IMG/VR virus record: IMGVR_UViG_3300010354_000763
Location: 1 to 22,081 of that record
Origin: a virus
Reading direction: 5' to 3' (one strand)
DNA length: 22,081 bases
Below are positions 2-18,036 of this stretch, one piece after another. The first letter of the stretch is position 1. Every line of letters begins with the position of its first letter. A model generated the notes under the pieces. That model ran no database searches, was not told where the DNA came from, and saw nothing but the letters and a program-made list of their open reading frames with translations. The position numbers and the translations under genes were made by a program.

Positions 2-3000
2 GGTTTTCAAGGAATCACCGGGAGCACCGGATTCCAGGGAAATCAAGGAGATCGAGGTAACGCTGTTTTAAATGGCTCAGCGGCTCCGAGCAGCGGCACA
101 GGCACAAACGGCGACTTCTTTATCGACACGTCTGAGTGGTCGATTTACGGACCCAAACAGAGTGGTTCTTGGCCGGGATCGAGTACGTCCTTAATCGGTC
201 CGCAGGGTGCAAAAGGCGACATCGGTCCTCAAGGTTTTACTGGCGTTCAGGGTGTTATAGGGCCGCAGGGATTTACCGGTCATCAAGGATTTACTGGTGC
301 TCAGGGTGTTACCGGCGTTCAGGGTTTCACCGGCGTTCAAGGCGCGATCGGACCCCAAGGATTCACCGGTAATCAAGGATCAATTGGCCCTCAAGGCTTT
401 ACCGGTGTTCAGGGATTCACGGGTGTTCAAGGTGCATTAGGTCCTCAAGGTGTCACCGGTTTCCAAGGACTGACGGGAGCTCAAGGAACTTTCGGAAACT
501 TTGGCGGTGATTCCCTTAAATACGTCTTTAAAAGCTACAGCGGCTCTCCTGGAACCGTAGCCGGAGATTGCGTTTTCAACAACGCATCAAACGCGTTAAC
601 AGACAAGATATACTTAGCCAAAACTGACGCTCAGTCTATCGCTGTATCTGCGTGGTTATTATCGCTGGATGACTCCTCTAATCCTGTTAAAGGATCCCTG
701 CGCATCTCGAAGGAGTACGCATCCGCAACGTTCACCGACTTCACCATAAATGGTGTTTCTGACAACACCGGATACGTTGATATATCGGTAACTAACGTAA
801 TCGCCGGAAGTGCATTTTCGAGCGGGGACAACGTAATTATTTCGTTTGCTCGAGCCGGTAATATCGGTTCTCAAGGTGTTGTTGGTCCTCAGGGCTTTAT
901 CGGAGCTCAGGGTATAATTGGACCTCAAGGACTTTCAGGCCCTCAAGGATTTACAGGAATTCAAGGACCAATCGGTCCTCAAGGTAATCGCGGTAATTCC
1001 GTCCTTAATGGCTCTGCGACGCCAAGTAGCGGTGACGGCACGAACGGGGATTTCTGGATTGATACGTCTGAGTGGTCAATCTACGGACCCAAGCAAAGCG
1101 GATCGTGGCCCTCTCCAGGCACCTCACTAATCGGACCTCAAGGTGCTAAAGGTGCGCAGGGCGCAACCGGCGCTCAGGGCGCTACTGGAACACAAGGCGC
1201 AGCCGGTGCGCAGGGCGCAACTGGCGCTCAGGGAGTATCCGGACCGCAAGGATTCACAGGCGTGCAGGGCGCGGTCGGGCCTCAAGGATTTACAGGAACT
1301 CAGGGATTTACGGGAGTTCAAGGTGCGTTAGGTCCTCAAGGGTTTACCGGCACACAAGGTATAATCGGGGTTCAAGGTTATCAGGGAACTTTCGGAAACT
1401 TTGGCGGCGATTCTCTTAGATATCAAGTTAAGGCATTCTCCGCCGCAGCGGTTGGAACCGGTGGTCTTGCGTTTAACGATACCGATGTAAACACCACTAC
1501 TAAGATCTATTTACACAAAACTGATGCTCAGAGCGCCACGGTTTCAGCCTGGCTTCTTGCACTCGACGACAGTACAAACGCGATCAAAGGATCGTTGAGA
1601 ATATCTCGAGAGTACGAATCGTCAACATTTGTTGATTATCAAATTACGTCGATTGTTGATACGACTAACTACGTTGAAGTGTCGGTAACTTACGTCATCG
1701 ACGCAGGTGATTTGACCGTCAACGATTACGTCGTAGTTTCGTTCGCACGCGCAGGTAATATCGGCTCTCAAGGCGTCTCTGGCGCACAAGGAGCGGTGGG
1801 CCCTCAGGGCTTTACGGGCGTGCAGGGTTCTGCGGGTGCTCAGGGAGTATCCGGACCGCAAGGATTCACAGGCGTTCAAGGATTCACGGGTGTTCAGGGC
1901 TTTACCGGTGCCCAAGGCGCGGTTGGTCCCCAAGGCTTTACTGGTGTTCAAGGATTTACAGGCGTTCAAGGCTCGATTGGTCCGCAAGGATTTACAGGCG
2001 TACAGGGATTTACAGGTGCTCAAGGCGCGCTTGGTCCGCAAGGAAATACCGGTAACGCCGTTCTCAACGGAGCTGCGGCCCCGGGCGGTGCTAACGGAAC
2101 TAACGGAGATTTCTGGATAGACACATCTGAGTGGACTATCTACGGGCCTAAGCAGAGCGGATCGTGGCCATCTCCGGGAACATCCTTAATCGGACCTCAG
2201 GGAGCTAAAGGATCTCAAGGCGCAATCGGACCGCAAGGTTTCACCGGTGCTCAAGGCTTTACCGGCGCACAAGGATCTACAGGGTCACAAGGATTTACCG
2301 GCGTTCAAGGCGCAACCGGTTCGCAAGGATTCACGGGTGTCCAAGGATTTACGGGCGCTCAAGGTGTTATTGGTCCTCAAGGCTTCACCGGAGTACAAGG
2401 ATTTACCGGTGTTCAGGGCTCAATCGGGCCACAAGGTTTCACCGGAGTACAGGGCGCTTTAGGCCCTCAAGGCTTTACCGGAGTACAAGGATTTACGGGT
2501 GTGCAAGGCGCGCTTGGTCCTCAGGGGTTCACAGGCGTTCAAGGCTTTACAGGCGCGCAGGGATTTACCGGTGCTCAAGGATTTACCGGCGTTCAAGGCG
2601 CGCTCGGACCCCAAGGTTTTACGGGGGTTCAAGGATTTACGGGCGCGCAAGGCGCAATTGGTCCGCAAGGTTTCACAGGAGTTCAGGGTTTCACCGGCAC
2701 GCAGGGGCCGATAGGGCCGCAAGGTTTCACCGGAACTCAGGGAACGTTTGGCAACTTTGGCGGCGATTCGCTGAAGTACACGTTTAAGGGTTACAGCGGT
2801 TCGCCGTCAACAGGGGCCGGGGATTGCACGTTCAACGACACTACGAACGCGCTTACGTCTAAAATCTATTTCGCAAAGACGGATGCGCAGTCCACGGCTG
2901 TAGCGGCATGGCTGCTCGCGCTCGACGATTCAACAAATACGGTAAAGGGTTCGCTCCGCATCTCCAAAGAGTATGCGTCGGCCACCTACACGGACTTCAC

Positions 3001-3859
3001 GATCAGCAGCGTGACGGATCAGACGGGCTACGTTGAGGTTGTCGTATCAAACGTAGTGGCGGGCAGCGCGTTCACCGCGCTTGATAGCATTATTGTATCT
3101 TTTGCTCGGTCTGGTGACGTTGGGCCGCAAGGTGCGAAGGGTGCTCAAGGCGCTATCGGTCCTCAAGGCTTCACGGGTGTTCAGGGCTTTACGGGTACTC
3201 AAGGCGCGCTTGGTCCCCAAGGATTTACGGGTGTCCAAGGCTTTACCGGTGTTCAGGGTGCAATAGGTCCTCAGGGTTTCACCGGAGTTCAGGGGTTCAC
3301 GGGCGTTCAAGGCTCAACGGGACCCCAAGGATTTACAGGCGTACAGGGCTTTACAGGCGTACAAGGCGCGATAGGACCCCAAGGCTTTACTGGTGTTCAG
3401 GGATTCACCGGTGTGCAGGGCGCCATTGGACCCCAAGGATTTACAGGCGTTCAGGGTGCAATCGGTCCGCAAGGCTTCACCGGTGTTCAAGGAGCGATTG
3501 GACCTCAGGGAGCTCCGGGTACAACAGATCACGGCGCGCTTACCGGCTTAGGTGACGACGACCACACGATCTACGCGGCCATAACGCCCACTACATCTAG
3601 CCGAAATATTATTCGCGGATCCACTTCCGGCGTCACCGGACTTACGATTAGAAACGCTTCGTCCGGCGACTTCATATTAGAACTAAGGAACGCCGCAAAT
3701 ACCACCGTAGTATCTGTTACGGACGACGGCGTAATGAAGGCGAAGGGGTTTAACTCGGACTCGCAAAAGGTGATCAACGTTTTAGATCCTACGGCAAACC
3801 AGGATGCGGCGACGAAGTATTACGTGGACAACGTGACAATTGACGGCGGAACCTACTGA
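2..3859 (+). CDS. Collagen-like phage tail fibre protein (5' end outside window)
   Basis: The frame is open from base 2 to the TGA at 3857-3859, giving 1285 residues in the window with the N-terminus missing. A GTG at 1262 lies in the middle of the repeat and is not a credible start. Most of the protein is uninterrupted Gly-X-Y triplets, chiefly GFT, GVQ, GAI/GAL and GPQ, which should form a collagen triple helix. The triplets are broken by two globular modules, each present three times and listed separately. The C-terminal ~115 residues are typical of phage fibres: DHGALTGLGDDDH, then a beta-rich part, then LDPTANQDAATKYYVDN just before the end. Lysine in the Y position (GAKG) is seen only directly after modules. 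By family it is a virion surface fibre, probably used for host attachment. The fibre call is firm; which fibre it is remains unknown. Confidence 0.9.
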   Translation, partial: GFQGITGSTGFQGNQGDRGNAVLNGSAAPSSGTGTNGDFFIDTSEWSIYGPKQSGSWPGSSTSLIGPQGAKGDIGPQGFTGVQGVIGPQGFTGHQGFTGAQGVTGVQGFTGVQGAIGPQGFTGNQGSIGPQGFTGVQGFTGVQGALGPQGVTGFQGLTGAQGTFGNFGGDSLKYVFKSYSGSPGTVAGDCVFNNASNALTDKIYLAKTDAQSIAVSAWLLSLDDSSNPVKGSLRISKEYASATFTDFTINGVSDNTGYVDISVTNVIAGSAFSSGDNVIISFARAGNIGSQGVVGPQGFIGAQGIIGPQGLSGPQGFTGIQGPIGPQGNRGNSVLNGSATPSSGDGTNGDFWIDTSEWSIYGPKQSGSWPSPGTSLIGPQGAKGAQGATGAQGATGTQGAAGAQGATGAQGVSGPQGFTGVQGAVGPQGFTGTQGFTGVQGALGPQGFTGTQGIIGVQGYQGTFGNFGGDSLRYQVKAFSAAAVGTGGLAFNDTDVNTTTKIYLHKTDAQSATVSAWLLALDDSTNAIKGSLRISREYESSTFVDYQITSIVDTTNYVEVSVTYVIDAGDLTVNDYVVVSFARAGNIGSQGVSGAQGAVGPQGFTGVQGSAGAQGVSGPQGFTGVQGFTGVQGFTGAQGAVGPQGFTGVQGFTGVQGSIGPQGFTGVQGFTGAQGALGPQGNTGNAVLNGAAAPGGANGTNGDFWIDTSEWTIYGPKQSGSWPSPGTSLIGPQGAKGSQGAIGPQGFTGAQGFTGAQGSTGSQGFTGVQGATGSQGFTGVQGFTGAQGVIGPQGFTGVQGFTGVQGSIGPQGFTGVQGALGPQGFTGVQGFTGVQGALGPQGFTGVQGFTGAQGFTGAQGFTGVQGALGPQGFTGVQGFTGAQGAIGPQGFTGVQGFTGTQGPIGPQGFTGTQGTFGNFGGDSLKYTFKGYSGSPSTGAGDCTFNDTTNALTSKIYFAKTDAQSTAVAAWLLALDDSTNTVKGSLRISKEYASATYTDFTISSVTDQTGYVEVVVSNVVAGSAFTALDSIIVSFARSGDVGPQGAKGAQGAIGPQGFTGVQGFTGTQGALGPQGFTGVQGFTGVQGAIGPQGFTGVQGFTGVQGSTGPQGFTGVQGFTGVQGAIGPQGFTGVQGFTGVQGAIGPQGFTGVQGAIGPQGFTGVQGAIGPQGAPGTTDHGALTGLGDDDHTIYAAITPTTSSRNIIRGSTSGVTGLTIRNASSGDFILELRNAANTTVVSVTDDGVMKAKGFNSDSQKVINVLDPTANQDAATKYYVDNVTIDGGTY
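56..208 (+). repeat. Fibre module A, copy 1 (51 residues)
   Basis: This is the first of three 153-bp in-frame copies inside the collagen-like gene. It runs from GNAVLNG through GDFFIDTSEWSIYGPK to SLIGPQG. The core, a GDFW-IDT followed by IYGPK pattern, is a small module often seen between collagen-like stretches of phage fibres. Its function is unknown; it may act as a trimer-registering knot between helical rods. Confidence 0.8.
488..868 (+). repeat. Fibre module B, copy 1 (127 residues)
   Basis: This is the first of three copies of a ~126-residue beta-rich module. It starts with TFGNFGGDSLKY and ends with ISFARAGNIG, with conserved KIY..KTDAQS and W-LL-LDDS-N--KGSLRIS in between. Collagen triplets lie on both sides. 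It looks like a beta-sandwich inserted into the rod. I cannot assign it to a named family. Confidence 0.8.
992..1144 (+). repeat. Fibre module A, copy 2
   Basis: This second 153-bp copy begins GNSVLNGSATPSSGDGTNG and ends SLIGPQG. It has the same length as copies 1 and 3 and starts 936 bp after copy 1. It is followed immediately by a GAKG triplet, as are the other two copies. Confidence 0.8.
1388..1765 (+). repeat. Fibre module B, copy 2
   Basis: This second copy (126 residues) begins TFGNFGGDSLRYQVK and ends SFARAGNIG. It is one residue shorter than copies 1 and 3 and visibly more diverged in its middle, for example KIYLHKTDAQSATVSAWLL and the SIVDTTNYVEVSV stretch. The ends are nearly identical to the other copies. 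Confidence 0.8.
2051..2203 (+). repeat. Fibre module A, copy 3
   Basis: This third 153-bp copy begins GNAVLNGAAAPGG and ends SLIGPQG, again followed by GAKG. After it comes the longest uninterrupted collagen stretch in the window, about 180 Gly-X-Y triplets running to module B copy 3. Confidence 0.8.
2744..3124 (+). repeat. Fibre module B, copy 3
   Basis: This third copy (127 residues) begins TFGNFGGDSLKYTFKGYSG, closely like copy 1, and ends SFARSGDVG. It is followed by GPQGAKG and about 130 further collagen triplets that lead to the C-terminal fibre tip domain. Confidence 0.8.
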
Positions 3860-3876: not shown

Positions 3877-4230
3877 ATGGCTAACAGAATTGTCCTTCGT
3901 AGATCGACGGTATCCAACACAGCGCTTCCGACGAGCGGCGTTCTTGTGGGCGAGATCTTCGCAAACACCGCCGATCTTAAGTTATTTTTAGGGACCGGCA
4001 CCACCACTACCGCAGAGATAGCCTATGTCGGATTTTCAGAGTACACCGCATTAGGTACTTTGCTTATAGGCGATGGTGGTGGCAACGTTACAAAAATACA
4101 AACCGACAACGCGACGGATGGCGATGTACTAACCTACGACGCCAACAACGACCCTCCGATATTCTGGGCCACACCCACCGGAGGTGCCGGGTCCGACGAA
4201 ACCGCCATAGCCTGGTTCCTAGGAGTCTGA
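3877..4230 (+). CDS. Small fibre protein, Mtd N-terminal-domain-like
   Basis: This 117-residue protein starts at ATG 3877, 17 bp after the collagen-like gene. Its first ~45 residues, with MANRIVLRRST, a GVLVGEIFANT stretch and KLFLGTGTT, resemble the N-terminal beta domain found on many phage fibre and tropism-determinant proteins (pattern RR.T...P..GE......KL..G). The rest has a glycine-rich turn (GDGGGN) and an acidic linker ending FLGV. It probably acts as a fibre adaptor or short virion attachment protein. The family assignment is by eye. The next gene begins 2 bp after its stop, so the two are probably co-translated. Confidence 0.6.
   Translation: MANRIVLRRSTVSNTALPTSGVLVGEIFANTADLKLFLGTGTTTTAEIAYVGFSEYTALGTLLIGDGGGNVTKIQTDNATDGDVLTYDANNDPPIFWATPTGGAGSDETAIAWFLGV
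4221..4225 (+). promoter_or_regulatory. Shine-Dalgarno for the LRR fibre gene
   Basis: AGGAG lies 6 nt before the ATG at 4232, inside the last codons of the preceding gene. It supports that start. Confidence 0.7.
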
Positions 4231-4231
4231 T

Positions 4232-6877
4232 ATGCCAAGTCGTGGCAATAACGGATATATTGGTGGTGTTGATCCGAGAAGCAAGGGAGAGTCGGCTGAC
4301 GCTATATTTAATTCTAGAGATCACGCATTCTGCGTGAGTTCTGGGGATGTGGCGCCGATCGACAGCTTTGAGTACGACGACCCCTACGTAGCACCTACAA
4401 ACGGCGGGGGATCTGGCGCAACTGCTACCGTCTCTTTAAAGAACGGATCAGTATCGTCTGTCGTAATGACTAACTTAGGAACTGGCTACACATCTGATCC
4501 TACTGTGTCGTTCAGCGGCGGTGGCGGCTCAGGTGCCGAGGGTTACGTAACAAGATCACAGACAAACCAAAACATAACCGCGGTAAACAACTACTACCAA
4601 ATTTACGACGTTGAAATCTTGTACGGAGGCGAAGGCTACACCTCGGCTCCGACGATAACATTTTCTGCTCCTGCTGCTGGCGGAACCACGGCAACCGTAA
4701 CAAGCACCACAATTACTGGCGGCGTCCTTACCGGCATTACGTTTGGCACGACAGGAACTCGATATACCGGTCACCCGACAATAACAATATCAACATCGGG
4801 AAACACAAAACCAGCTCAGGTTATTACGAAGATTCGAAACGGATCTGGCTACACATCGGCACCTAACGTCGCATTTAGCGGAGGTAACGGAGCTAACGCC
4901 GCGGCCACGGCGTATATTCAAGCTGAACTAGATACTGTTACTATTACAGCAAACGGCTCCGGATACACGTCCGCGCCTACGGTAACTATACCGGGAATGA
5001 ACGAAGCTGCGACCGCGACTGCGACTATTTCTGGCGGACAAGTAACAGCCATATCGATAAGTAACTGTACTAATTTATACATGGAGCCGCCGACAATAAC
5101 GATAGGCGGTTGGCCTGCCCTTCCCTCTGTTTCTAACGGAGATCAGAAGTTTGTAGGAGCTTACGCAGTATTTAACAATAATTCAAACTTCGTGGCTGTT
5201 CAATGTCAAGGCGCGTACACAGTGGACTGGGGCGACGGAACATCTAGTAATGCCACGTCAAATACGGTAGCCTATAAGCAATATACGACCACAGAATATG
5301 CTGCTATATCGGGACAAAGCGCATTTAGAGGTTATAAGGTTGTAATAATTACCATAACGCCGCAAGCTGGCTCAAATCTTACTTCTATTAGTCTTAATGT
5401 AAAACATAACCAAGCTGGATTAGCTGATTATATTTCTGGCTGGTTAGACATAAAAGTTGCTGGTCAGAATTTAACTGCGTTGACGATCGGGGGAACCAAC
5501 ACTGCGGTCAGATCCGGCATGCTTGAAAGATTTGAGTTTGTAGGGACAAATACAGGATTTGTCAGTTGGACTTATCTATTTGAATATTGCTATAATCTAA
5601 GAAAAATTGTATCGCTTCCTCCAGGAACTCCTACAAATCTCACAGAGGCATTTTTAAATTGTTCTTCGCTAAGAACAATCCCTAATTTTACAACTTCCGG
5701 GATAACTACGTTATCTAATACATTTTCCGGCTGCGGCGCCCTGAGAAGGGTTCCACCGATAACGTCAACAACGATAACCACCTTTGCTTCAGCGTTTAAT
5801 AACTGTAAATCTCTGGAGGTAGCGCCGGTAATAATAACGTCGTCAGCGACAAACATAACCAGTGCGTTCACTAATAACTACAAGCTTCAAAGGTTGCCCC
5901 CGATGGACACTATAAATGTCACGTCGGCAAATAGTGCCTTTTCTAATTGCTACTCTATTTTAGAAGTTCCAGACCTAGATCTCAGAAGCTGCACAAATAC
6001 GACTAGCATGTTTTCAGTTTGTCCTCGGTTAAAATCAGTTGGTTATTTAAATACTTCTGCCGCGACTAATATGAGCGGTATGTTTTCGGCTTGCTATAAT
6101 CTAAAAAAAGTAGCGTATATAAATACGTCAAAAGCGACGTCACTCTTTGGATTATTTAGCGGCTGTTACTCGCTCGAAGAGGTCCCGCCGATTGATGCGA
6201 CCAGCGCGACGTCGATCAACAGCATATTTTCTTCGTGCTACTCTTTGAAGTCCGTCTCTATATTAAACACCACCAGATGCAGCGAGTTCGGTTCCGCGTT
6301 TTCTCAGTGTCAAAGTCTGTCGGATCCGCCCTGGTTCGATACGTCAAGAGCGACAAATGTAAGTAGTATGTTCGATAGCTGCGTTTCTCTTAAAACAATT
6401 CCTCAATACAGCTTTGTTTTAACAACATCACTCGCTAGTGTGTACGGCAACTGCACGTCACTCTCGCTTATCCCAAAAATAATAGCCACTAAAGCAACAG
6501 ACCTTTCGAATGTTTTTTATAACGATCAAACCATCACTCTTATTGACGGCATCACACTTGGCGCGGCCACAACTGCCGGTCAGATGTTTTTTGGTAATAC
6601 AAGCTTAACTCAGATGCCTATTTTAGATTTAAGCACGATCACCTCTGGTGCCACATCTTTTTGCACAAACAACAATGTTCGATCAGGTTATACGACAGGA
6701 ATGCGATACGGGCATTCTTATCAAAACTGCAAATTAGCTGCCGCCGAACTTGACACTATTTACACAAATTTAGGAACTGCGGTGGGATCTCAAACCATCA
6801 CGGTTACGGGCAATTGGGGGACCGCGACGGATACTCCCTCTATTGCAACTGCAAAAGGATGGACGGTAAGTGGCTGA
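4232..6877 (+). CDS. Phage fibre protein with beta repeats, PKD-like segment and BspA-type LRR array
   Basis: This 881-residue protein starts at ATG 4232 behind a good AGGAG. Residues ~1-50 are a unique N-terminus, perhaps for virion attachment. Residues ~55-295 hold glycine-rich beta repeats around a GSGYTSAPTVTI-like core. Residues ~305-395 contain YTVDWGDGT, the signature turn of PKD-like domains. Residues ~469-804 are fourteen 24-residue repeats of the BspA/DUF285 surface-protein type (F..C.SL..VP.ID...-T). Residues ~810-881 form a C-terminal cap. BspA-type LRRs are known from bacterial surface and adhesion proteins, so a receptor-binding role is likely but inferred. GC content drops within the gene, from ~57% in the beta repeats to ~35% in parts of the LRR, suggesting domain acquisition. 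Confidence 0.82.
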   Translation: MPSRGNNGYIGGVDPRSKGESADAIFNSRDHAFCVSSGDVAPIDSFEYDDPYVAPTNGGGSGATATVSLKNGSVSSVVMTNLGTGYTSDPTVSFSGGGGSGAEGYVTRSQTNQNITAVNNYYQIYDVEILYGGEGYTSAPTITFSAPAAGGTTATVTSTTITGGVLTGITFGTTGTRYTGHPTITISTSGNTKPAQVITKIRNGSGYTSAPNVAFSGGNGANAAATAYIQAELDTVTITANGSGYTSAPTVTIPGMNEAATATATISGGQVTAISISNCTNLYMEPPTITIGGWPALPSVSNGDQKFVGAYAVFNNNSNFVAVQCQGAYTVDWGDGTSSNATSNTVAYKQYTTTEYAAISGQSAFRGYKVVIITITPQAGSNLTSISLNVKHNQAGLADYISGWLDIKVAGQNLTALTIGGTNTAVRSGMLERFEFVGTNTGFVSWTYLFEYCYNLRKIVSLPPGTPTNLTEAFLNCSSLRTIPNFTTSGITTLSNTFSGCGALRRVPPITSTTITTFASAFNNCKSLEVAPVIITSSATNITSAFTNNYKLQRLPPMDTINVTSANSAFSNCYSILEVPDLDLRSCTNTTSMFSVCPRLKSVGYLNTSAATNMSGMFSACYNLKKVAYINTSKATSLFGLFSGCYSLEEVPPIDATSATSINSIFSSCYSLKSVSILNTTRCSEFGSAFSQCQSLSDPPWFDTSRATNVSSMFDSCVSLKTIPQYSFVLTTSLASVYGNCTSLSLIPKIIATKATDLSNVFYNDQTITLIDGITLGAATTAGQMFFGNTSLTQMPILDLSTITSGATSFCTNNNVRSGYTTGMRYGHSYQNCKLAAAELDTIYTNLGTAVGSQTITVTGNWGTATDTPSIATAKGWTVSG
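4400..5115 (+). repeat. Glycine-rich beta repeats (GSGYTSAPTVTI type)
   Basis: There are about five imperfect in-frame copies: GTGYTSDPTVSFSG, GEGYTSAPTITFSA, GTRYTGHPTITIS, GSGYTSAPNVAFSG and GSGYTSAPTVTIPG, with a degenerate last one ending EPPTITIGG. Stretches of GGSGATATV type separate them. Such repeats are common in phage tail and fibre proteins. Confidence 0.75.
5636..6643 (+). repeat. Fourteen tandem 24-residue BspA-type leucine-rich repeats
   Basis: The array starts NLTEAFLNCSSLRTIP and keeps a strict 24-residue period with no indels, each unit ending in T or S. The consensus is xxSxxFSxCxSLxxVPxIxTSxAT. The Cys at position 9 is present in most units and lost in units 4, 13 and 14 (TNNYKL, YNDQTI, FGNTSL). 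Confidence 0.8.
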
Positions 6878-7145
6878 TACAGATTTTAACTCCTACAAAC
6901 CGGACGGCTTCTTTAAGTCGTACGAAACGTACATCGCGCACGGCCCGAACTTCGTGAAGCACAAAGATTTCGAGCTCTACCGCGACGAGAAGGATTCGTA
7001 TACGCTGCCCATCGACGGGTGGTACTGGTTCGATTCCGAGGAGGAGGCGTGCACCTTCTTTGGATTTCCCTACGTGCCGTACGAAGATCGGCAAGGATGG
7101 GAACTTGGAACCGTGCCGCCTGGATATCAATTTCCGAGTAACTAA
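6870..7145 (+). CDS. Small conserved-looking phage protein, unknown function
   Basis: This 91-residue, acidic and aromatic-rich protein starts with GTG at 6870, overlaps the previous stop by 8 nt, and has an AAGGA upstream. It shows DGFFKSYETYIAHGP near the N-terminus, DGWYWFDSEEEACTFFG in the middle and a short Pro/Gly tail. There is no signal peptide or membrane segment. The dense aromatic core suggests a compact folded domain. Position between a fibre gene and a beta-sandwich virion protein suggests a structural or fibre-associated role, but I do not recognise the family. Confidence 0.6.
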   Translation: MADTDFNSYKPDGFFKSYETYIAHGPNFVKHKDFELYRDEKDSYTLPIDGWYWFDSEEEACTFFGFPYVPYEDRQGWELGTVPPGYQFPSN

Positions 7146-7468
7146 TGGCTAACACATTTAAAAGTTCAGGCGTCAAGCTAAGCTCGACCACGGCGACGAA
7201 TCTTTACTCGGTCCCCGTGTCCACGACCGCGGTTGTTAAAAGCGTGTACGTAGCAAACATACACGTCTCAGCAACGGCCACGATCGACGTGTACTACACA
7301 CGCAGCTCGGTAGACTACTACATCATCAAGGGCGCCACGGTGCCGGTATCCACGACTCTTCAGGTTGTGACCGAGTCGTTGGTGCTTCAGGCGTCAGACG
7401 TCCTTAAGGTGAAGGCATCGGCGGCAGATAGATTAGATTGCACGGCGTCGTATCTTGAAATAACCTGA
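7145..7468 (+). CDS. Small beta-rich virion-type protein
   Basis: This 107-residue protein starts at ATG 7145, whose A is the last base of the preceding TAA (TAATG coupling). The sequence is Ser/Thr/Val-rich alternating beta strands: SGVKLSSTTATNLYSVPVST, then VKSVYVANI, YYIIKGATVPVSTT and a C-terminal LDCTASYLEIT. This layout (…TTA..LY.VP..TTA.VKS…, …LEAGD.LKV.AS…SYLE) matches small proteins common near fibre genes of tailed phages, probably a beta-sandwich. A virion-surface role is inferred from that and from the location. Confidence 0.6.
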   Translation: MANTFKSSGVKLSSTTATNLYSVPVSTTAVVKSVYVANIHVSATATIDVYYTRSSVDYYIIKGATVPVSTTLQVVTESLVLQASDVLKVKASAADRLDCTASYLEIT

Positions 7469-7502: not shown

Positions 7503-8615
7503 GTGTATAAAGTGCTTCTTGTAGTTCCTGGCGATCAGCTGGCGGCGGCCGTTCAAGCACGAGAGGCCGCCGTTGAAATTCTCGGAAGTGTGAAGCTGAC
7601 GATCGTGTCTCAATTAGAGCCCTTCGCCGACAATCGAATTCCTGATGCCATAATAAGCGTCGCCAACTGCGAGTACGATAAGTTGGCGGCGCTTCCTTAT
7701 TGGGTGAGGCGGCGCTGGATTAATCCTCAGGCTGTTCCTTCGGTGCGCGATATCATCGAGTCAGTAAAGCAAATCTATTGGAGCTATACCGATCCTCGAC
7801 AAGACGGAATTCCAAAAGTTTCCATCTTCACGCCCACGCACAACTCGGCGAAGTTTATCGCAGAAACCTGGGAAGCCGTACGCGACCAAACTTATTCAAA
7901 CTTCGAGTGGGTGATCGTCGATGATGGATCGACCGACAACACCGTAAAGATATTAAAAGAGTTTCGAGCCGCTGATCCGCGCATTAAAATCTTCGAGTTC
8001 CCGCCTATAAATCGAATCGGTTATCTGAAGAAGGCCGCGACGGGTTTGTGCACCGGTAATTTTTTAGTTGAACTCGATCACGACGATTGGTTGACGCCTA
8101 ACTGCTTGGAGCGAGTGGTCCAGACCTTTGCCTTAGATCCAAAGATCGGCATGGTCTACAGTAATTCCGCAGAATACTATCCGGAAACTGGGTTGTGTAA
8201 CGTGTACGGTGCGCCGTATTGGCGTTATCGAAAAACCGAATGGCGCGACATGTTCGTCGACGAGGCCCTTAGTTGGGACGTAAACGGAACGTATACCGAC
8301 GGGTTTAACGTATGGAACGTTATCGACGCTATGAACGTCTGCCCTAATCACGTACGCGCTTTCCGTGCCCGCGCGCTTTCGGATATCGGCGGTTATCGTG
8401 ATTTGGTCTGGGCCGATGACTATGATGTCATGATTAGGATGTTCTTGAGACATGAGATAAAGCTCATACCTGAACTACTTTATGTTCAGCGGATGGGCAC
8501 AAACACATGGACAAGAAATACCGAATTATTGTGGCCGTGCTTCGGGGAAATACGCAAACAATACGGATACGAGCTGAATTTGAGAATACAGGAGAAGCAA
8601 CATGCGATTAAATGA
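7503..8615 (+). CDS. Glycosyltransferase family 2 protein
   Basis: This 370-residue protein starts with GTG at 7503, preceded by GAGGG. Residues ~1-100 are an N-terminal region I cannot assign (MYKVLLVVPGDQL…). The GT-A catalytic domain starts near residue 104: PKVSIFTPTHNS, then VIVDDGSTDNT at ~138-147 (nucleotide-sugar binding aspartates) and the metal-binding DHDD at 192-195. Acidic residues WADDYD further on fit the usual catalytic-base region. There is no membrane helix, so it is a soluble cytoplasmic enzyme that transfers a sugar from an activated donor to an unknown acceptor. It begins a three-gene glycosyltransferase run directly after the fibre genes; modification of a virion protein is the simplest inference. 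Confidence 0.88.
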   Translation: MYKVLLVVPGDQLAAAVQAREAAVEILGSVKLTIVSQLEPFADNRIPDAIISVANCEYDKLAALPYWVRRRWINPQAVPSVRDIIESVKQIYWSYTDPRQDGIPKVSIFTPTHNSAKFIAETWEAVRDQTYSNFEWVIVDDGSTDNTVKILKEFRAADPRIKIFEFPPINRIGYLKKAATGLCTGNFLVELDHDDWLTPNCLERVVQTFALDPKIGMVYSNSAEYYPETGLCNVYGAPYWRYRKTEWRDMFVDEALSWDVNGTYTDGFNVWNVIDAMNVCPNHVRAFRARALSDIGGYRDLVWADDYDVMIRMFLRHEIKLIPELLYVQRMGTNTWTRNTELLWPCFGEIRKQYGYELNLRIQEKQHAIK

Positions 8616-9306
8616 TTATTTTGATCAGGTTTACTGCTTATCGCTTCCACACTCGGTAGAGCGCCGAGCTTTTATGAATAAGAAGGCGGCGGCTTTTGAC
8701 CTTTCCTTCGGCTACTACCCAGGAATCTACGGTTCCCTATTAGCTAATGTGCATAAGGTGTTTTCTAAAAACACGGAAACTCGGATATCTAGCCCTAACT
8801 ATATGGGCTGCGCTTTGGCACATTTGTCCATATATAAAGACGCCTTAAGCCGCGGCCGAAAACAGATTCTAGTATTAGAGGACGATCTTCTATTTCATCG
8901 AGATCTAAATAAGAGATTTGATGATATCTGCCCTGAAATCCCCGAAAATTGGAATTTACTCTACTTAGCGTGGATTCCGCTATCCGATGATCTGAGTATG
9001 TGGGACTACAACGTCATCACACCAAACATAATCACACCGAATATTGTTCGGGCTAAGAATATGTGGTCGTGCATGGCTTACGGGATATCGGAGACTGCGA
9101 TGCAGAAGACGCTCGAGTCCTTCGATTTTTCAAAAGAAATCGATCGCTTCTTCGTGGAGGATATTCAACCTAATTATCCCTGCTACGGAATAAGGCCCCA
9201 GTTATTTGCGGGCTACGACAATTTAAGTAATAATACAGGTAACTACGACTCCATATTCCGGAAGAGCTACGACGCGCGCGTCGCTGGCCCACTCGACTAC
9301 GTATGA
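8602..9306 (+). CDS. Glycosyltransferase family 25 protein
   Basis: This 234-residue protein starts at ATG 8602, overlapping the previous gene by 14 nt, with GGAG upstream. Family GT25 features are present in order: a QVYCLSLPHSVERR start with the ERR of the donor site (~20-22), GCALAHLSIYKDAL (69-82) matching the family's GC..SH-type segment, and ILVLEDDLLF (89-98) with the acidic metal-binding motif. GT25 includes bacterial lipooligosaccharide galactosyltransferases and the animal collagen galactosyltransferases. Length fits the bacterial members. The acceptor is not shown by the sequence. The adjacent collagen-like fibre makes a protein acceptor attractive; host cell-surface glycan modification is the alternative. 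Confidence 0.85.
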   Translation: MRLNDYFDQVYCLSLPHSVERRAFMNKKAAAFDLSFGYYPGIYGSLLANVHKVFSKNTETRISSPNYMGCALAHLSIYKDALSRGRKQILVLEDDLLFHRDLNKRFDDICPEIPENWNLLYLAWIPLSDDLSMWDYNVITPNIITPNIVRAKNMWSCMAYGISETAMQKTLESFDFSKEIDRFFVEDIQPNYPCYGIRPQLFAGYDNLSNNTGNYDSIFRKSYDARVAGPLDYV

Positions 9307-9944
9307 TCTTACCGGACGTTTACATCATAACCCCCACTTATCGCCGCGATCTCAAGACGATCGAGAGGTGCATAGCTTGCGTCCGGTCTCAGGTCTACGA
9401 GGGAAATATTCATCACATTATCTGCTCGGATGGTGATCGGGAAGATTCGCTAGCCGCCCTCCAGGACATCAAGAAACAGACCGGTTCGGATAACCGGATT
9501 CTCAAATATTGCTGGACCGACGCACACACGAACAGCTGGGGCGCGGGTGTTCGGCAGTACGTACTGAACGACATTCCCGTCGTTGAGGGGGCGTACGTCG
9601 CCCACGTAGACGACGATAACATTATCTTCCCCCACTATGTGCGGGATCAGGTAATGGCTCTTGAGGCGCACCCGGAGTGCGGGTTCTCTATCTGCCAGAT
9701 TATTCACGATGGTCCGTTGCCGGATCACCTAGGCCGACCGCCGGCGATTATTACGGGTATACCACCCCGGATTCAAAACATCGACACCCTTCAGGTTATG
9801 GTACGGATTGAGGCTATGCGCAACTGCGGTTGGATCTGTGAGACCGGGTCTACAGGATACCTGAATGACGGTAGAACGTATGAAAAATTAGGGAAGCTTT
9901 TTAAGTATATCGAGGTGCCTGATATTTTAGGCGTACACCTTTGA
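9303..9944 (+). CDS. Glycosyltransferase family 2-like protein
   Basis: This 213-residue protein starts at ATG 9303 in an ATGA overlap with the GT25 gene. It has the GT-A layout: VYIITPTYRRDLKTIERC at the start, IICSDGD (39-45) in place of the usual VDDGS, a GAGVRQYVLN segment, and AHVDDDNIIFPHYV (100-113) as the DXD metal site. It is shorter than typical GT2 enzymes, with little C-terminal to the acceptor region. It lies in the same transcription unit as the other two glycosyltransferases, so the three probably build a short glycan in sequence. Donor and acceptor are unknown. Confidence 0.8.
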   Translation: MILPDVYIITPTYRRDLKTIERCIACVRSQVYEGNIHHIICSDGDREDSLAALQDIKKQTGSDNRILKYCWTDAHTNSWGAGVRQYVLNDIPVVEGAYVAHVDDDNIIFPHYVRDQVMALEAHPECGFSICQIIHDGPLPDHLGRPPAIITGIPPRIQNIDTLQVMVRIEAMRNCGWICETGSTGYLNDGRTYEKLGKLFKYIEVPDILGVHL

Positions 9945-9996: not shown

Positions 9997-11769
9997 ATGA
10001 AAATGGACACGCATTTTGATCCGTCGCCCTTGTTTGTCTCCAAGCCGGCCTATCAGCCGATGGAGAAGATCGCCGCTATTACCCTTGGCCGTGACGCCAA
10101 TAACTGGGAGCAGGAGATCTCTCAGGCGCTCCATAAGGAGCACCCGTTCATCCAAGAACACAACATAAACATTTTCATGACTAAGACCGACCCGGAGACG
10201 GGTACGGCGATCGGGTCACTTCAACTCGACAGTAAGATCTTAATCCCGATTATCATCGACAAATTCAAGTTGGCGCCGCTTGATCTGTTTTATTATCAAG
10301 GCAAGCTGTACCCGCTTACCAGGGCATCGCTCGAATCCGTTCTCCAGGACACATCTCTCGGAACGCCAGAGGCTCCGGGCCAAGGTGAGATGTCGGACGT
10401 CTCGCTTTATGGTCGCGTACAACCGCCCTTCGACGGCAAGTACACCTACGCGTCGTCGTTCGCCGATGTTACGACCCCGACCGTTTTTGGCTCGGCGCTT
10501 TACGCCGCCTTGGGTGGCGAGGATCTTCTGAAGCACGAATTGAGCACTAACGAAACCTTCTTCAAAGTAGCGGAGATGTATTGCTCCTCCGACTATCAAG
10601 ATAAACCTGAGAAGAAGGCCAAGATGAAGAAGAAGGCCGGGCTCTCCCTACGTACTCACGCCTCGTTTGATAAGGTTGCTTCTCACGGTCTGTTCGAGAT
10701 TTCCTCCACAAACGGGAGAGTTCCGGCTCTTATTTTCGATTCGGTAATGGGCCTGGATGGATCTATGAGGGAAGGCCGGGGATTTGCTCTTGGTCTGACC
10801 AAAGAGGCTCACTACGCGTATTTAGAACCCGGCCAAGAAGTCGCCGGCCGCAAAACGACCGTGTCCGGCACGATTGATATCGGTACGCCGCTTTCCAAAA
10901 CCGCCGGGGTCTTCTTCAAGATGACTAAGCAGGCCGGGATCTGCACCGATCCGATCTTTATTGATCACGTTGTCGGCCAGGACGAGTGGGTTTGCCACGA
11001 CAGCTACGGCCAGCGCTTCCGCATGCAGAAGACTGCCGAGATCAAAGCCCCGGTATTCGGCGGCGGCGTTCTCTCGATTCCGGCTGATTGGACGTGGGGC
11101 GACATCAAGACCAAGACGGACGTAATGACCGTTAAAGAAGCCGCGCTCACAGAACCTCACTCCTCGGCGTATTTCAGCGTCTCCAATTTCGGAGGCCGAT
11201 ATACAGTTCGTGGTTTGGATGGCTTTGCCTCGGATGGTGACGATATTGAGAAGACCGCCACCGCGCTTAATGAGCGATTCGAGACTAGAGATGTCGTCGC
11301 GCTGCTTAACAACATGAGCCACGGTGACACCGTTTATGTTTGTGTTAATCCGGTAGACACCGAGTTTGAAAATGTTTACGAGCAGATGGGCAAATTAGCC
11401 GGCGCTCACGGCGTGAACTTTATCAAGGAAGCCACGTACGTGCGCCCATGCAGCGAATTTTCGTTCAAGGCCCTTCCTTGGGGCGCTATTAAAATCGCCG
11501 CAGTTACGGATGACGACGCTAAGCAAACAGTAGATGCCATCCTGGGTCTCAACTTCCTTAACCCAGAGAATCTTTACAAATTCGCGGATAAGGTTACATT
11601 GATCGAGGATGCGAAAGAGGCTGTTGCCAAACTTCTGCTGGCGTCTCGACTTGGGCTCGATCTCGATTCCAGGCCGCTGCGCACGTCGATGTTTGCTCTA
11701 GAATCTGTCGCCCAGGATCTGCGCGAACTTCAAAATGCCGTCGAAGTCCAATCTCAATCCGAAGTGTGA
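9997..11769 (+). CDS. Unrecognised 590-residue phage protein, probably structural
   Basis: This protein starts at ATG 9997 with GAGG (9987-9990) six nt upstream. I do not recognise a family. Visible features: residues ~60-120 contain LQLDSKILIPIIIDKFKLAP and YYQGKLYPLT, which read as a compact alpha/beta domain. There is a lysine cluster KKAKMKKKAG near 205-215, a glycine/beta-rich middle, then an alternating beta/helix C-terminal third ending in a helical QDLRELQNAVEV tail. No signal peptide, transmembrane helix or nuclease motif is evident. It sits immediately before the terminase genes in the late block, where portal, capsid-associated or other virion genes are expected, so a structural role is likely but not shown. 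Codon use is more GC-rich (~55%) than in the neighbouring GT25 gene. Confidence 0.75.
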   Translation: MKMDTHFDPSPLFVSKPAYQPMEKIAAITLGRDANNWEQEISQALHKEHPFIQEHNINIFMTKTDPETGTAIGSLQLDSKILIPIIIDKFKLAPLDLFYYQGKLYPLTRASLESVLQDTSLGTPEAPGQGEMSDVSLYGRVQPPFDGKYTYASSFADVTTPTVFGSALYAALGGEDLLKHELSTNETFFKVAEMYCSSDYQDKPEKKAKMKKKAGLSLRTHASFDKVASHGLFEISSTNGRVPALIFDSVMGLDGSMREGRGFALGLTKEAHYAYLEPGQEVAGRKTTVSGTIDIGTPLSKTAGVFFKMTKQAGICTDPIFIDHVVGQDEWVCHDSYGQRFRMQKTAEIKAPVFGGGVLSIPADWTWGDIKTKTDVMTVKEAALTEPHSSAYFSVSNFGGRYTVRGLDGFASDGDDIEKTATALNERFETRDVVALLNNMSHGDTVYVCVNPVDTEFENVYEQMGKLAGAHGVNFIKEATYVRPCSEFSFKALPWGAIKIAAVTDDDAKQTVDAILGLNFLNPENLYKFADKVTLIEDAKEAVAKLLLASRLGLDLDSRPLRTSMFALESVAQDLRELQNAVEVQSQSEV

Positions 11770-14746: not shown

Positions 14747-15562
14747 TCACTCAGAAAGCAACAACCAAAGTCGGCGCAGTGCGTGATTCTCTCGTTGCCG
14801 AATTCGCTCGCGACTGAGATTAAACGTCTTAGCTATCTCATCGTACGTCTCGCCTGCGACGTAGTGCGACATCAACAAGTACACATCATCGAACGATAAC
14901 TTATCCAACGCGCGATTAAGATTGACGACCGATTCCTCTTGTAGGATTTTGGAAGATGGCTCTATTTCGTTGTCGTACCCTTCTGGAACCGAATCTATAG
15001 GAACAACGCGCTTATCCTGATCGGATTTAAGTTTGTTTATTTTAGCGTCGCTCCAATTACACTCCGCTCGCAGATAATCGTAAACCGCGTTATCGTCAAT
15101 ATTGATGTCGGAGTATTGATCAATTAAAAGTTCGCGAGTCTTCTTGAATTGATCGTGATATGACTTGTGCCTGATAATCTTGGAGTCGTAGTTAGAGAGC
15201 TCTTCGCGAATCATGGACTGAATCCACCACATGCCGTAGGTGGAGAAGCGGAAATACTTACCGTTCAGGCCGGCTTTTATATTGAACTTATCGATGCCCT
15301 TTATAAGTCCCAGCGTACCCACAGAAACCAAATCCATCATACGTGGGTCGCCCTCAAATACGAATCGGCGAACCCCCGCCAGCACGAGCTTCATATTTCT
15401 TTTTATGAACTCGTCTCGAGCCGGACACGCGTGATTGTGAACGTGCTTGTTCCCATCACACTCCAAATGAATCATGCATAATAAGTTGCGCTCCTCCTCG
15501 GCGGTTAAGAGAGGCTGCGCAAGATCGGAAGAATCGAAATAGGATTTTAACTCGTCGCTCAC
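14747..15562 (-). CDS. Sigma-70 family RNA polymerase sigma factor
   Basis: This 271-residue protein starts with GTG at 15562 in a GTGA overlap with the upstream gene. Region 2 is clear: FIKRNMKLVLAGVRRFVFEG, DLVSVGTLGLIKGIDKFN and FRFSTYGMWWIQSMIREEL, covering core binding and the -10 recognition helix. Region 4 near the C-terminus has LDKLSFDDVYLLM, then YDEIAKTFNLSRERIRQREN, a helix-turn-helix for the -35 element. Between residues 29 and 46 there is an unusual Cys/His cluster (C29, H32, C35, H40, H42, H44, C46) where most sigma factors have a short linker. It presumably redirects host RNA polymerase to phage promoters, perhaps the late genes that converge on it; that timing is inference. 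Being last in the leftward block fits accumulation late in early expression. Confidence 0.92.
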   Translation of the reverse strand: MSDELKSYFDSSDLAQPLLTAEEERNLLCMIHLECDGNKHVHNHACPARDEFIKRNMKLVLAGVRRFVFEGDPRMMDLVSVGTLGLIKGIDKFNIKAGLNGKYFRFSTYGMWWIQSMIREELSNYDSKIIRHKSYHDQFKKTRELLIDQYSDINIDDNAVYDYLRAECNWSDAKINKLKSDQDKRVVPIDSVPEGYDNEIEPSSKILQEESVVNLNRALDKLSFDDVYLLMSHYVAGETYDEIAKTFNLSRERIRQRENHALRRLWLLLSE

Positions 15563-15987
15563 GTGTTCGCCTGCTGGAGAGCCTCTCTCATAGTTTTTAT
15601 GGCGAGCGACTTCAACTCATTAACTCGAATAGTAGGAATTCCCCACGCGATAAAGTCCCACTGATTTCGATACAGCGGACTCTCCGAAGCCTCTACGCGC
15701 ACATTTGTAGGGAGGCTGTGCAGTACCTTAATGCAGTAGTCGTACATGGCTTTTCCGAGGATGGCCATGTTGTTTGCCGATATATTTTTGACGTGAAATA
15801 TCAACTTAGATGTTTCGGGGAAATGATCGATTGCGCACGATATCACGAGGTTAGGGTCATATCGCAAACCGGTTACGGCGATATCCTCGAATTTTATAGC
15901 CATGCCCGCGGCTGTTTTATCTGCCGCGGCTGTTAGGGCCTTAGTAGCCGCTTCGGTGATGCTGCTCAGCTTATTAGGCGTCGTCAT
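15559..15987 (-). CDS. Unrecognised 142-residue protein upstream of the sigma factor
   Basis: Its ATG at 15985-15987 overlaps the upstream gene by 14 nt and its stop overlaps the sigma factor start by 4 nt, so it is translated within the leftward operon. Residues ~1-30 are Ala/Thr-rich and helical (TEAATKALTAAADKTAAG). The rest alternates strand and helix: FEDIAVTGLRYDPNLVISC, KLIFHVKNIS, a helix with KAMYDYCIKVL, then VRVEASESPLY and a final helix. M29 is a possible later start. I do not recognise the fold. Translational coupling to the sigma factor allows, but does not show, a regulatory link such as an anti-sigma or co-factor. Confidence 0.6.
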   Translation of the reverse strand: MTTPNKLSSITEAATKALTAAADKTAAGMAIKFEDIAVTGLRYDPNLVISCAIDHFPETSKLIFHVKNISANNMAILGKAMYDYCIKVLHSLPTNVRVEASESPLYRNQWDFIAWGIPTIRVNELKSLAIKTMREALQQANT

Positions 15988-16432
15988 TTAATATTTTGTC
16001 CGTGATATCGTCGGCATTTCGCAAAACCTGAATAAGTTTCTCGATGTCGGCGATAGTTAGAAACTGGGTTACGGTATTAGCCAGCCACTGATTGCGGCTG
16101 AGTTTATGATCCCACGCGAGCTGTGTCAAGGTATCTCGATATCGCAAAGTAGGTCTAAGAGCGATCTTGCGATCTTTCTTGACCGGTCGCTCGCGGTAAA
16201 GATAGCCAAACCAAGTCCGATGCTCAACCGCCATTTTCAACAAATCAATATTACAGCGACCGCTCTTCTTAAGTACATCGCGCCATAGTTTGTGGGTGTC
16301 GTTGTCCACCCACACCTCGATCATGTGTCCGCAGTGCGGGTTGTCTACCCGTTTTGATTTTGACCCGGCCACCACTCGACCGGAACCCACTTTTGCAACT
16401 TGCATTTTTCGCATTTTATCAGTTGTTGCCAT
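15974..16432 (-). CDS. Ribbon-helix-helix-like protein, candidate regulator
   Basis: This is a 152-residue frame from ATG 16432. Residues ~89-125, KIALRPTLRYRDTLTQLAWD followed by SRNQWLANTV, read as a ribbon-helix-helix: a beta strand, a helix with conserved L..LA, the S-N-W turn and a second helix. Residues 37-75 (MIEVWVDNDTHKLWRDVLKK, then a helical NIDLLKMAVEH) could be a second, degenerate copy. The first 36 residues are basic and low in hydrophobics. They overlap the 59-residue zinc-ribbon gene by 88 nt, so the true start may be the ATG at residue 37 (16324), which removes the overlap. Two genes upstream of the sigma factor, it could be a transcription regulator; the family call is by eye. 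Confidence 0.55.
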   Translation of the reverse strand: MATTDKMRKMQVAKVGSGRVVAGSKSKRVDNPHCGHMIEVWVDNDTHKLWRDVLKKSGRCNIDLLKMAVEHRTWFGYLYRERPVKKDRKIALRPTLRYRDTLTQLAWDHKLSRNQWLANTVTQFLTIADIEKLIQVLRNADDITDKILNDDA

Positions 16433-16524
16433 GAACCATCAGGCATCTGTTTATCGCGAATCACCGAAGTATTGTGGCTGCCACACAAGCACTGAACATT
16501 TCCGTACTTAACGAACTCGTTCAT
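16345..16524 (-). CDS. 59-residue zinc-ribbon protein
   Basis: I read this frame directly on the minus strand from ATG 16524 to TAG 16345-16347. It begins MNEFVKYGNVQCLCG and contains C12-x-C14 and C38-x2-C41 (IKCEKCK), separated by 23 residues, followed by a Trp-rich tail (KWVPVEWWPG). This is a four-cysteine zinc-ribbon layout with one irregular CxC half. It begins 11 nt after the stop of the RuvC gene, filling an otherwise empty gap of about 100 bp, with a weak GGA upstream. It overlaps the start of the ribbon-helix-helix-like gene in another frame. Phage genomes often encode such small zinc ribbons; function is unknown. Real-gene status rests on the cysteine pattern and the tight packing. 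Confidence 0.6.
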   Translation of the reverse strand: MNEFVKYGNVQCLCGSHNTSVIRDKQMPDGSWQQLIKCEKCKLQKWVPVEWWPGQNQNG

Positions 16525-16535
16525 GGTTTTCCAGA

Positions 16536-17060
16536 CTAAAATAAATGCCCGACCATCGCCAGGGCTACGGCGTCTGAAACGTCGTCCTCCGAATCGGCCA
16601 ATCCGTCCGGGTGCCCTAACTTAGCTAAGTCGGCCTTAAATAGTTTATTCACCATTTCCCGAACTTCCTGCTTAACGATATCCCGCTTTTTACCCTTTAT
16701 TGCCAGCTTTGAGCGGGCTTGTACGGCCATTACCTCGACCGGTTTGATTCCACACTCATGTGCCGCTATGGAAGCCGCCTCCTGGGCTCTCACAGCCGCC
16801 AACATGGCATCCATGTTCCGGCCTCCCATATTGACCCGGATCTTCTCTATGCAGACTATATGAGGCTTGTGAAGCTTAATTAAATCTCGAACTATCTCGA
16901 ATAGCTGGTGAGTTCGCTCCGGCATCTCCATTCGGCTGTAGGGAACAACATCTAGCCGGATATGCTTGATGTAGATCAATTCACGATTTTTATCAGAGGT
17001 ATCGATTATGGCGATACCGGCGCGGCGAGTTCCAGAATCTATTCCCATTACATGTGGCAT
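16536..17060 (-). CDS. ruvC: RuvC-like Holliday junction resolvase
   Basis: This 174-residue protein matches RuvC in length and motif order. D8 lies in MGIDSGTRRAGIAII, E72 in VCIEKIR, and the C-terminal pair D160/D163 in EDDVSDAVALAM, which are the four acidic metal-binding positions of the RNase H fold resolvases. The frame starts at ATG 17060; M5 is an alternative start with the same motifs. RuvC-type enzymes cut four-way junctions symmetrically; phages use them to resolve recombination intermediates and debranch DNA before packaging. The gene ends 11 nt before the zinc-ribbon gene. The family call is confident; a general branched-DNA endonuclease is the functional alternative. Confidence 0.9.
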   Translation of the reverse strand: MPHVMGIDSGTRRAGIAIIDTSDKNRELIYIKHIRLDVVPYSRMEMPERTHQLFEIVRDLIKLHKPHIVCIEKIRVNMGGRNMDAMLAAVRAQEAASIAAHECGIKPVEVMAVQARSKLAIKGKKRDIVKQEVREMVNKLFKADLAKLGHPDGLADSEDDVSDAVALAMVGHLF

Positions 17061-17083
17061 ATTATGTTCTCAAATCGGGCAGA

Positions 17084-17512
17084 TCACATCCCTATATCCA
17101 TGTCCTCAGGCGGCGTTCGGCCAGTGGTTCCTTCTTTCTTTCGAAGCCCCTCTTCGAGTTTCTTGCGGCGGGACGGTGGTATCTTGTGAAGCGGTACGTT
17201 AAGCGGCGCTTTTGGAACCTTTTTGAAGGGACGACCGAATACGTACTCCAGAGCTTCCACAATACCTTCAGATGTTATCTCGCCAATTTTAGTATTGGGG
17301 TTTAAAAAAGATTTTAAGTCTAATGTGACCGGCTGGGCCTCCGACGTCAGGTACTCGAAAGAGAGTACCTGGGTCGGGACCCCACCGGTGCTTACATCAG
17401 TGATGACCTCGCGGCGACAATATATGAACCAACCTGTTACTGAGGCTGACGTCGAGCTGACTTCGAAGCCTTTGATGAGGAAGTTCCAGAATTCGTCGCG
17501 CTTGGTATCCAT
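17084..17512 (-). CDS. Unrecognised 142-residue protein between RNase H and RuvC genes
   Basis: It starts at ATG 17512, overlapping the end of the RNase H gene by 76 nt, and ends 23 nt before the RuvC start. The N-terminal ~90 residues alternate helix and strand (DEFWNFLIKGFEVSS, GWFIYCRREVITD, VLSFEYLTSEAQPVTLDL). The C-terminal ~45 residues are basic and proline-rich (KKVPKAPLNVP, PPSRRKKLEEGLRKKEG), probably disordered and able to bind nucleic acid or protein partners. I see no catalytic motif. Position between two nuclease genes suggests DNA metabolism, by context only. Confidence 0.6.
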   Translation of the reverse strand: MDTKRDEFWNFLIKGFEVSSTSASVTGWFIYCRREVITDVSTGGVPTQVLSFEYLTSEAQPVTLDLKSFLNPNTKIGEITSEGIVEALEYVFGRPFKKVPKAPLNVPLHKIPPSRRKKLEEGLRKKEGTTGRTPPEDMDIGM

Positions 17513-17982: not shown

Positions 17983-17984
17983 AG

Positions 17985-18036
17985 CTTTACGATTTATACA
18001 TCATGGTTGACGCAACTAGTCGTAACTTTACGATTT
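17985..18036 (-). repeat. 11-bp direct repeat bracketing the largest leftward intergenic gap
   Basis: CTTTACGATTT occurs at 17985-17995 and 18026-18036 (AAATCGTAAAG on the leftward strand). The upstream copy contains the stop of the 536-residue gene and the downstream copy lies just before the RNase H start. The 45-bp gap between the genes (17983-18027) is otherwise plain. It could be a protein-binding pair or the trace of a small duplication. Confidence 0.35.

What the first reader, a model, noticed from the sequence alone, without database searches (positions are those of the whole stretch)
7503..9944. Three glycosyltransferases, one of family GT25, beside a collagen-like fibre: a possible phage fibre-glycosylation system
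Seen: GT2, GT25 and GT2 genes overlap in one run (14 and 4 nt) directly after the fibre genes. The collagen fibre's most common triplet is GFT, with Thr in the Y position, and GAKG occurs after all three A modules and after B copy 3. Known: GT25 includes the animal collagen galactosyltransferases; Thr in Y positions is glycosylated in the Bacillus BclA collagen-like spore protein and in Riftia cuticle collagen. Inference: the trio adds a short glycan to Thr (or Lys) of the fibre, stabilising the helix without hydroxyproline or shielding it. No lysyl or prolyl hydroxylase is visible in the window, so Thr is the more likely acceptor.
Basis: partly seen in the sequence, partly recalled or inferred. 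Interest (0 to 1): 0.75.

Follow-up and report, generated by a model that had tools for sequence, protein, structure and literature searches.

The report
Phage sugar-adding enzymes beside collagen fibre
A virus of bacteria carries three sugar-adding enzymes in the same gene run as a collagen-like tail fibre, and relatives of the first enzyme sit next to collagen-like genes again and again in other phages and bacteria, so the trio probably decorates the fibre with sugars.

Summary
In detail: GT2, GT25 and GT2 genes (7503-9944) overlap by 14 and 4 nt in an all-plus-strand late run from a collagen-like fibre to TerL. The first gene (GT2a) belongs to a GT2 subfamily (VELDHDDxL...PNHVRA) tied to collagen-like genes: 59/80 bacterial loci have one within 5 kb (47/80 within 1 kb; same-strand cases: 31 with the GT downstream, 1 upstream), against 0/40 ordinary GT2 loci in ten of those genomes. 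In phages, GT genes occur in 23/235 collagen-fibre loci versus 1/107 collagen-free S74-fibre loci. GT25 is the weaker clue: its predicted fold is nearest COLGALT1 (Z 22.2) and mimivirus R655, but five of six phage records with its closest relatives hold no collagen. Thr at position Y does not track GT presence, so the acceptor stays open. The closest GT2a relatives sit in DNA-metabolism or housekeeping runs, and the exact trio was found nowhere else. Best model: GT2a starts and GT25/GT2b extend a short O-glycan on the fibre; confidence about 0.6.

The parts
2..3859 (+). collagen-like tail fibre (1285 aa, 5' end off the contig), probable acceptor
   Evidence: PF01391 3e-100; PHROG tail-fibre families; 51 of 233 triplets are GFT
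3877..4230 (+). 117-aa protein, weak resemblance to a baseplate wedge family
   Evidence: phrog_32294 6e-4
4232..6877 (+). 881-aa virion-type protein with DUF285 repeats, second possible acceptor
   Evidence: PF03382 1.6e-18; PHROG virion structural families
6870..7145 (+). 91-aa ORF, unknown, in the same run
   Evidence: no family match
7145..7468 (+). small protein of a family annotated as virion structural in other phages, ends 34 nt before GT2a
   Evidence: phrog_1276 7.6e-11; up to 42% identity to annotated structural proteins of marine and Rhizobium phages
7503..8615 (+). GT2a: GT-A glycosyltransferase of the collagen-associated GT2 subfamily, with a ~100-aa N-terminal domain
   Evidence: PF00535 1.6e-27; family neighbourhood; model pLDDT 83.5, nearest folds K4 chondroitin polymerase and SpsA
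8602..9306 (+). GT25: single-domain family 25 glycosyltransferase
   Evidence: PF01755 1.4e-14; COLGALT1 Z 22.2, R655 18.8, beta-1,4-GalT 17.6
9303..9944 (+). GT2b: short GT2 glycosyltransferase
   Evidence: PF00535 2.9e-10; SpsA the best PDB sequence match, 2.7e-4
9997..11769 (+). 590-aa protein of unknown function, next gene in the run
   Evidence: no family match; no match in the phage collection
12807..14732 (+). terminase large subunit, end of the plus-strand run
   Evidence: phrog_675 7.7e-53

Best explanation
The three genes are a small late-expressed protein-glycosylation module for a virion protein, most likely the collagen-like tail fibre. GT2a, from a subfamily repeatedly encoded beside collagen-like proteins, probably adds the first sugar from a host nucleotide sugar to Ser/Thr side chains in or next to the Gly-X-Y segments, in the cytoplasm as the fibre is made. 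GT25 and GT2b probably extend it to a di- or trisaccharide. The glycan would hydrate and stiffen a triple helix that lacks hydroxyproline and shield it from proteases or other binders. Shown here: gene order, fold and family, the statistical tie between this GT2 subfamily and collagen-like genes, and the enrichment of GTs at phage collagen fibres. Inferred: activity, acceptor residue, sugar, order of action and benefit.
For: (1) One plus-strand run from fibre to TerL with short gaps or overlaps, the early-type genes being on the other strand; no promoter-like site in excess of chance. (2) The GT2a family in bacteria: collagen-like ORF within 1 kb in 47/80 loci and within 5 kb in 59/80; same-strand cases within 1 kb are 31 with the GT downstream against 1 upstream. 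Ordinary GT2 loci (PF00535, +-5 kb) of ten of these genomes: 0/40. The collagen label needs about 29 changes on the tree, at least 20 on well-supported branches, so the pairing recurs. (3) Phages: GTs in 13/120 and 10/115 collagen loci against 1/107 collagen-free S74-fibre loci, pooled p = 0.002. Direct collagen-to-GT2 joins occur in L110 (overlap), L425 (4-nt overlap) and L053 (28 nt). (4) The GT25 model is nearest COLGALT1. (5) Precedent: the C. difficile GT SgtA, encoded beside bclA3, adds GlcNAc to Thr in its collagen repeats (PMC7157674). (6) No strongly hydrophobic segment in the three GTs, unlike membrane GtrB enzymes (own knowledge).
Against: The closest GT2a relatives (47-55% identity) are not in collagen operons: in T4-like phages they follow SbcCD-like recombination genes and converge with collagen genes (L374, L375), and in L453-L455 they have no collagen ORF in the held flanks. 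L014/L015 have none either. GT25 relatives mostly lie in phages without collagen. Thr in Y does not track GT presence. Four genes separate fibre and GT2a. The exact trio was found nowhere else. L002 has a GT25-GT2-GT2 run inside a glycan-synthesis cluster. No biochemical evidence exists.
Confidence: 0.6

Rival explanations
1. The enzymes remodel a host surface glycan (LPS, capsule or teichoic acid) during infection, to block superinfection or free progeny.
For: GT25 was named for LPS synthesis (PF01755). L002 has GT25-GT2-GT2 among sugar-nucleotide genes and no collagen in the held contig. GT25 relatives in LR756508 and LR756501 also lie among glycan-type genes.
Against: No GtrB-like membrane segments and no sugar-nucleotide, flippase or anchor genes in the window; late plus-strand run with virion genes; the GT2a subfamily tracks collagen genes.
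Confidence: 0.2
2. The trio glycosylates another virion protein (for example the DUF285 protein, capsid or tail tube), as in mycobacteriophages, and lies beside the collagen fibre by chance of layout.
For: The DUF285 and phrog_1276-type proteins are nearer to the GTs than the collagen gene. Glycans at the C-termini of capsid and tail-tube proteins of mycobacteriophages are reported (PMC12619734 citing Freeman 2023).
Against: The association of the GT2a family in bacteria, outside any phage setting, is with collagen-like genes.
Confidence: 0.15
3. The enzymes add sugars to hypermodified bases of the phage DNA.
For: Phage GTs that modify DNA are known (own knowledge; also stated in PMC12619734); the closest GT2a relatives in T4-like phages follow SbcCD-like recombination genes.
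Against: No hydroxymethylase, base kinase or other base-modification gene in the window, though it is a fragment; late run with virion genes.
Confidence: 0.05

Closest known systems
Clostridioides difficile SgtA-BclA3 (GT-A glycosyltransferase beside a collagen-like spore protein)
   Same: A soluble GT-A enzyme encoded beside a collagen-like gene; Thr-containing Gly-X-Y repeats as acceptor (PMC7157674)
   Different: SgtA has C-terminal TPR repeats; GT2a has an N-terminal domain and no TPR match; spore coat, not virion; SgtA sequence not compared here
COLGALT1 procollagen galactosyltransferase (GT25)
   Same: GT25 fold, Z 22.2 over 196 residues, 21% identity; EDDL motif
   Different: Single 234-aa domain; no lysyl hydroxylase seen in the window; 21% identity cannot show substrate
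Mimivirus collagen-modifying enzymes (L230, R699, and the putative R655)
   Same: A virus that encodes both collagen-like proteins and GTs; R655 is the second fold match (Z 18.8)
   Different: Eukaryotic virus with hydroxylases; R655 activity not proven in the paper read (PMC9546862)
Mycobacteriophage virion glycosylation
   Same: Phage-encoded GTs that modify virion proteins, as reported in PMC12619734
   Different: Capsid and tail tube, not a collagen fibre; sequences not compared
LgtB-type bacterial beta-1,4-galactosyltransferases (GT25)
   Same: Same fold family (Z 17.1-17.6)
   Different: Further from the GT25 model than COLGALT1; act on lipooligosaccharide (own knowledge)

Membership tests
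Glycosyltransferase family GT25 (PF01755) | profile match over the curated cut-off | tested here: met
   54.9 bits against a cut-off of 24
Glycosyltransferase family GT25 (PF01755) | ExD metal-binding motif and GT25 fold | tested here: met
   E93 and D95 invariant in ten phage GT25 domains; Z 22.2 to COLGALT1 on a model of pLDDT 71.9
COLGALT-type collagen galactosyltransferase | two glycosyltransferase domains in one chain | tested here: not met
   The phage protein is a single 234-aa domain; COLGALT1 aligns from residue 335 on
COLGALT-type collagen galactosyltransferase | hydroxylysine acceptor made by a lysyl hydroxylase | tested here: inconclusive
   No 2OG oxygenase match in the window, but the contig is a fragment
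GT2 subfamily of window GT2a (VELDHDDxL, PNHVRA) | both motifs and full-length alignment | tested here: met
   placed in the tree of 167 members
GT2 subfamily of window GT2a (VELDHDDxL, PNHVRA) | neighbouring collagen-like gene (typical of the family, not universal) | tested here: met
   Collagen fibre in the same run, but 3.6 kb and four genes away, beyond the under-1-kb spacing commonest in bacteria
SgtA-type collagen O-GlcNAc transferase | C-terminal TPR repeats | tested here: not met
   No TPR match in GT2a; its extra domain is N-terminal
SgtA-type collagen O-GlcNAc transferase | Thr in Gly-X-Y repeats as acceptor | not testable with these tools
   GFT repeats are present, but comparative data do not single out Thr
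GtrB-type O-antigen conversion enzyme | C-terminal transmembrane helices | tested here: not met
   Highest 19-residue hydropathy 1.15 for GT2a, 0.79 for GT25 and GT2b
Mycobacteriophage-type virion glycosylation | glycan found on a virion protein | not testable with these tools
   needs virions

The most novel reading that the evidence does not exclude
A GT2 subfamily, defined by VELDHDDxL and PNHVRA motifs, is a dedicated collagen-glycosylating family shared by phages and bacteria; the window's trio is a phage fibre-maturation module built on it. Separately, some phages use collagen + 2OG oxygenase + GT4-GT25 proteins (L061, L261), a parallel to animal collagen hydroxylation and glycosylation.
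Probability: 0.45. Interest if true: 0.8.

Novelty: new variant of a known kind. Interest (0 to 1): 0.62.

Why it matters
Prokaryotes generally lack the hydroxyproline that stabilises animal collagen, and how phage collagen fibres are made stable and protected is open. A glycosyltransferase subfamily that tracks collagen-like genes across phages, Actinobacteria, Bacillota and other groups gives a testable handle: express it with any adjacent collagen-like protein and look for sugar. If right, it gives a genomic marker for glycosylated collagen-like proteins and possible tools for making glycosylated collagen in bacteria.

Tried and rejected
Close relatives of the whole contig: TerL, sigma factor and the GT run have only distant or no matches, and 9997-11769 and 19883-21034 have none in the phage collection. 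A first GT25 alignment was too diverse to scan viral contigs. Thr as predictor of GT presence: rejected. GT25 as collagen-specific: rejected. Promoter and terminator scans: counts no higher than about one standard deviation above shuffles. The first control with +-1.5 kb flanks was replaced by +-5 kb flanks. Papers: no report of a phage collagen-fibre glycosylation system in the held library; this does not show that none exists.

Full report
Observation. The contig is a 22,081-base virus record. A plus-strand run goes from a collagen-like fibre (2-3859) through an 881-aa DUF285 protein and a phrog_1276-type protein to the GTs, a 590-aa and a 360-aa protein of unknown function and the terminase large subunit. 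From 14747 on the genes lie on the other strand (sigma factor, RuvC, nucleases). Gaps are short or negative, so co-expression with virion genes is likely (inference). GFT is the commonest triplet and GAKG occurs four times. The collagen gene and GT2a are 3.6 kb and four genes apart.

Relatives of the phage. TerL is at most 28% identical to known phages; the GT run has no DNA match; 9997-11769 has no match in the phage collection. The phage is far from anything held.

GT25. Its best PDB sequence matches are human COLGALT1 (3.7e-5) and mimivirus R655 (0.009). A model from six sequences (pLDDT 71.9) is closest to COLGALT1 (Z 22.2, 196 residues, rmsd 2.7), then R655 (18.8), then bacterial beta-1,4-galactosyltransferases (17.1-17.6). 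But GT25 genes occur in Lak and other huge phages, and whole-record searches for PF01391 find no collagen in LR756504, LR756508, Lak-B5 and Lak-A1, nor in the L002 contig; LR756501 has many. In L002 a GT25-GT2-GT2 run lies in a glycan-synthesis cluster. GT25 alone is therefore no sign of a collagen system.

GTs at phage collagen fibres. Viral contigs were scanned with a Thr-type collagen pattern (120 loci), a Pro/Gln-type pattern (115 further loci) and a Peptidase S74 fibre motif as control (120 loci; 107 without collagen). With profiles for GT2, GT25 and GT4, GTs were found in 13/120, 10/115 and 1/107 (pooled Fisher p = 0.002). In 13 of 22 loci with a measured nearest collagen gene the GT is on the same strand and downstream; 11 of 22 gaps are under 600 nt. 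Thr in Y does not differ between collagen loci with and without GT (p = 0.37), nor does GT presence differ between Thr-type and Pro/Gln-type sets (p = 0.66). The contigs are not fully independent, and the profiles were grown from sequences that include collagen-linked loci, so these numbers are approximate.

GT2a family. A scan with GT2a gave L014-L018; a wider scan gave 80 viral loci, of which 36 have a collagen-like ORF in the held flanks (30/79 within 5 kb against 13/120 S74 loci, p = 8e-6). The bacterial scan was striking: 47/80 within 1 kb and 59/80 within 5 kb, the same-strand cases within 1 kb being 31 with the GT downstream and 1 upstream. Forty ordinary GT2 loci from ten of the same genomes had no collagen ORF within 5 kb (p = 1e-16). 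On a tree of 167 members the collagen label needs about 29 changes (at least 20 on well-supported branches; 56 in shuffles), so the pairing has arisen or been kept many times. Spot checks by Pfam confirmed the collagen calls in L425, L464, L483, L452 and L110; one (L457) was not confirmed in the frame tested. Loci include Paenibacillus, Streptomyces, Frankia, Thiothrix and a Lokiarchaeota contig. The seeds of the scan included a few collagen-linked phage loci, but both motifs are in the window's GT2a itself.

Counter-evidence. The clade around the window holds T4-like phages in which the GT follows SbcCD-like genes and converges with collagen genes, and planctomycete contigs with no collagen in the flanks. 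So the window's own branch is not the best example of the pairing. GT2a-adjacent collagens vary in Thr (18 of 62 under 2% in Y) and nine of 62 have under 5% Ser/Thr triplets, so the acceptor may differ or lie outside the helix.

Mechanism. I commit to fibre O-glycosylation: GT2a first, GT25 and GT2b extending. The nearest experimental precedent is SgtA, which adds GlcNAc to Thr of BclA3 collagen repeats and is encoded beside bclA3 (PMC7157674). Bacterial collagen-like proteins use Thr and Gln for hydration networks in place of hydroxyproline, and glycans are thought to add to this (PMC8968730). Host-surface remodelling is the main rival.

By-product. L061 and L261 carry, directly or one gene after a collagen-like fibre, a fused protein with GT4 and GT25 domains, an oxygenase domain in L061 by Pfam and in L261 by a local profile only, and a further 2OG oxygenase gene. 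DUF6445 genes occur in seven of the 235 collagen loci, all of which also have a GT.

Noticed in passing
L061:2436-5844 and L261:2726-5736: Phage collagen-like fibre genes followed by fused GT4-GT25 proteins with oxygenase parts and a separate 2OG-Fe(II) oxygenase gene, recalling animal PLOD/COLGALT and mimivirus L230.
   Followed up: partly
L031, L061, L277, L298, L304, L333, L335: All seven DUF6445 loci among 235 phage collagen loci also have a GT gene (hypergeometric 3e-8); DUF6445 may be a hydroxylase.
   Followed up: partly
window 4232-6877: 881-aa protein with DUF285 repeats, a family named from Mycoplasma proteins, here in a phage virion-gene run.
   Followed up: no
L425-L427 and L472: A collagen gene overlaps or closely precedes a GT2a-family gene and further GT2 genes follow, a layout much like the window.
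   Followed up: partly
window 14747-21867, minus strand: Block with a sigma-70-like factor, RuvC and PD-(D/E)XK-type nucleases, several genes without any family match.
   Followed up: no
GT2a-adjacent collagens: Median Pro in X is 0.10 against 0.32 in pattern-selected phage collagens; biased by the patterns, but GT-linked collagens may be poor in Pro.
   Followed up: no
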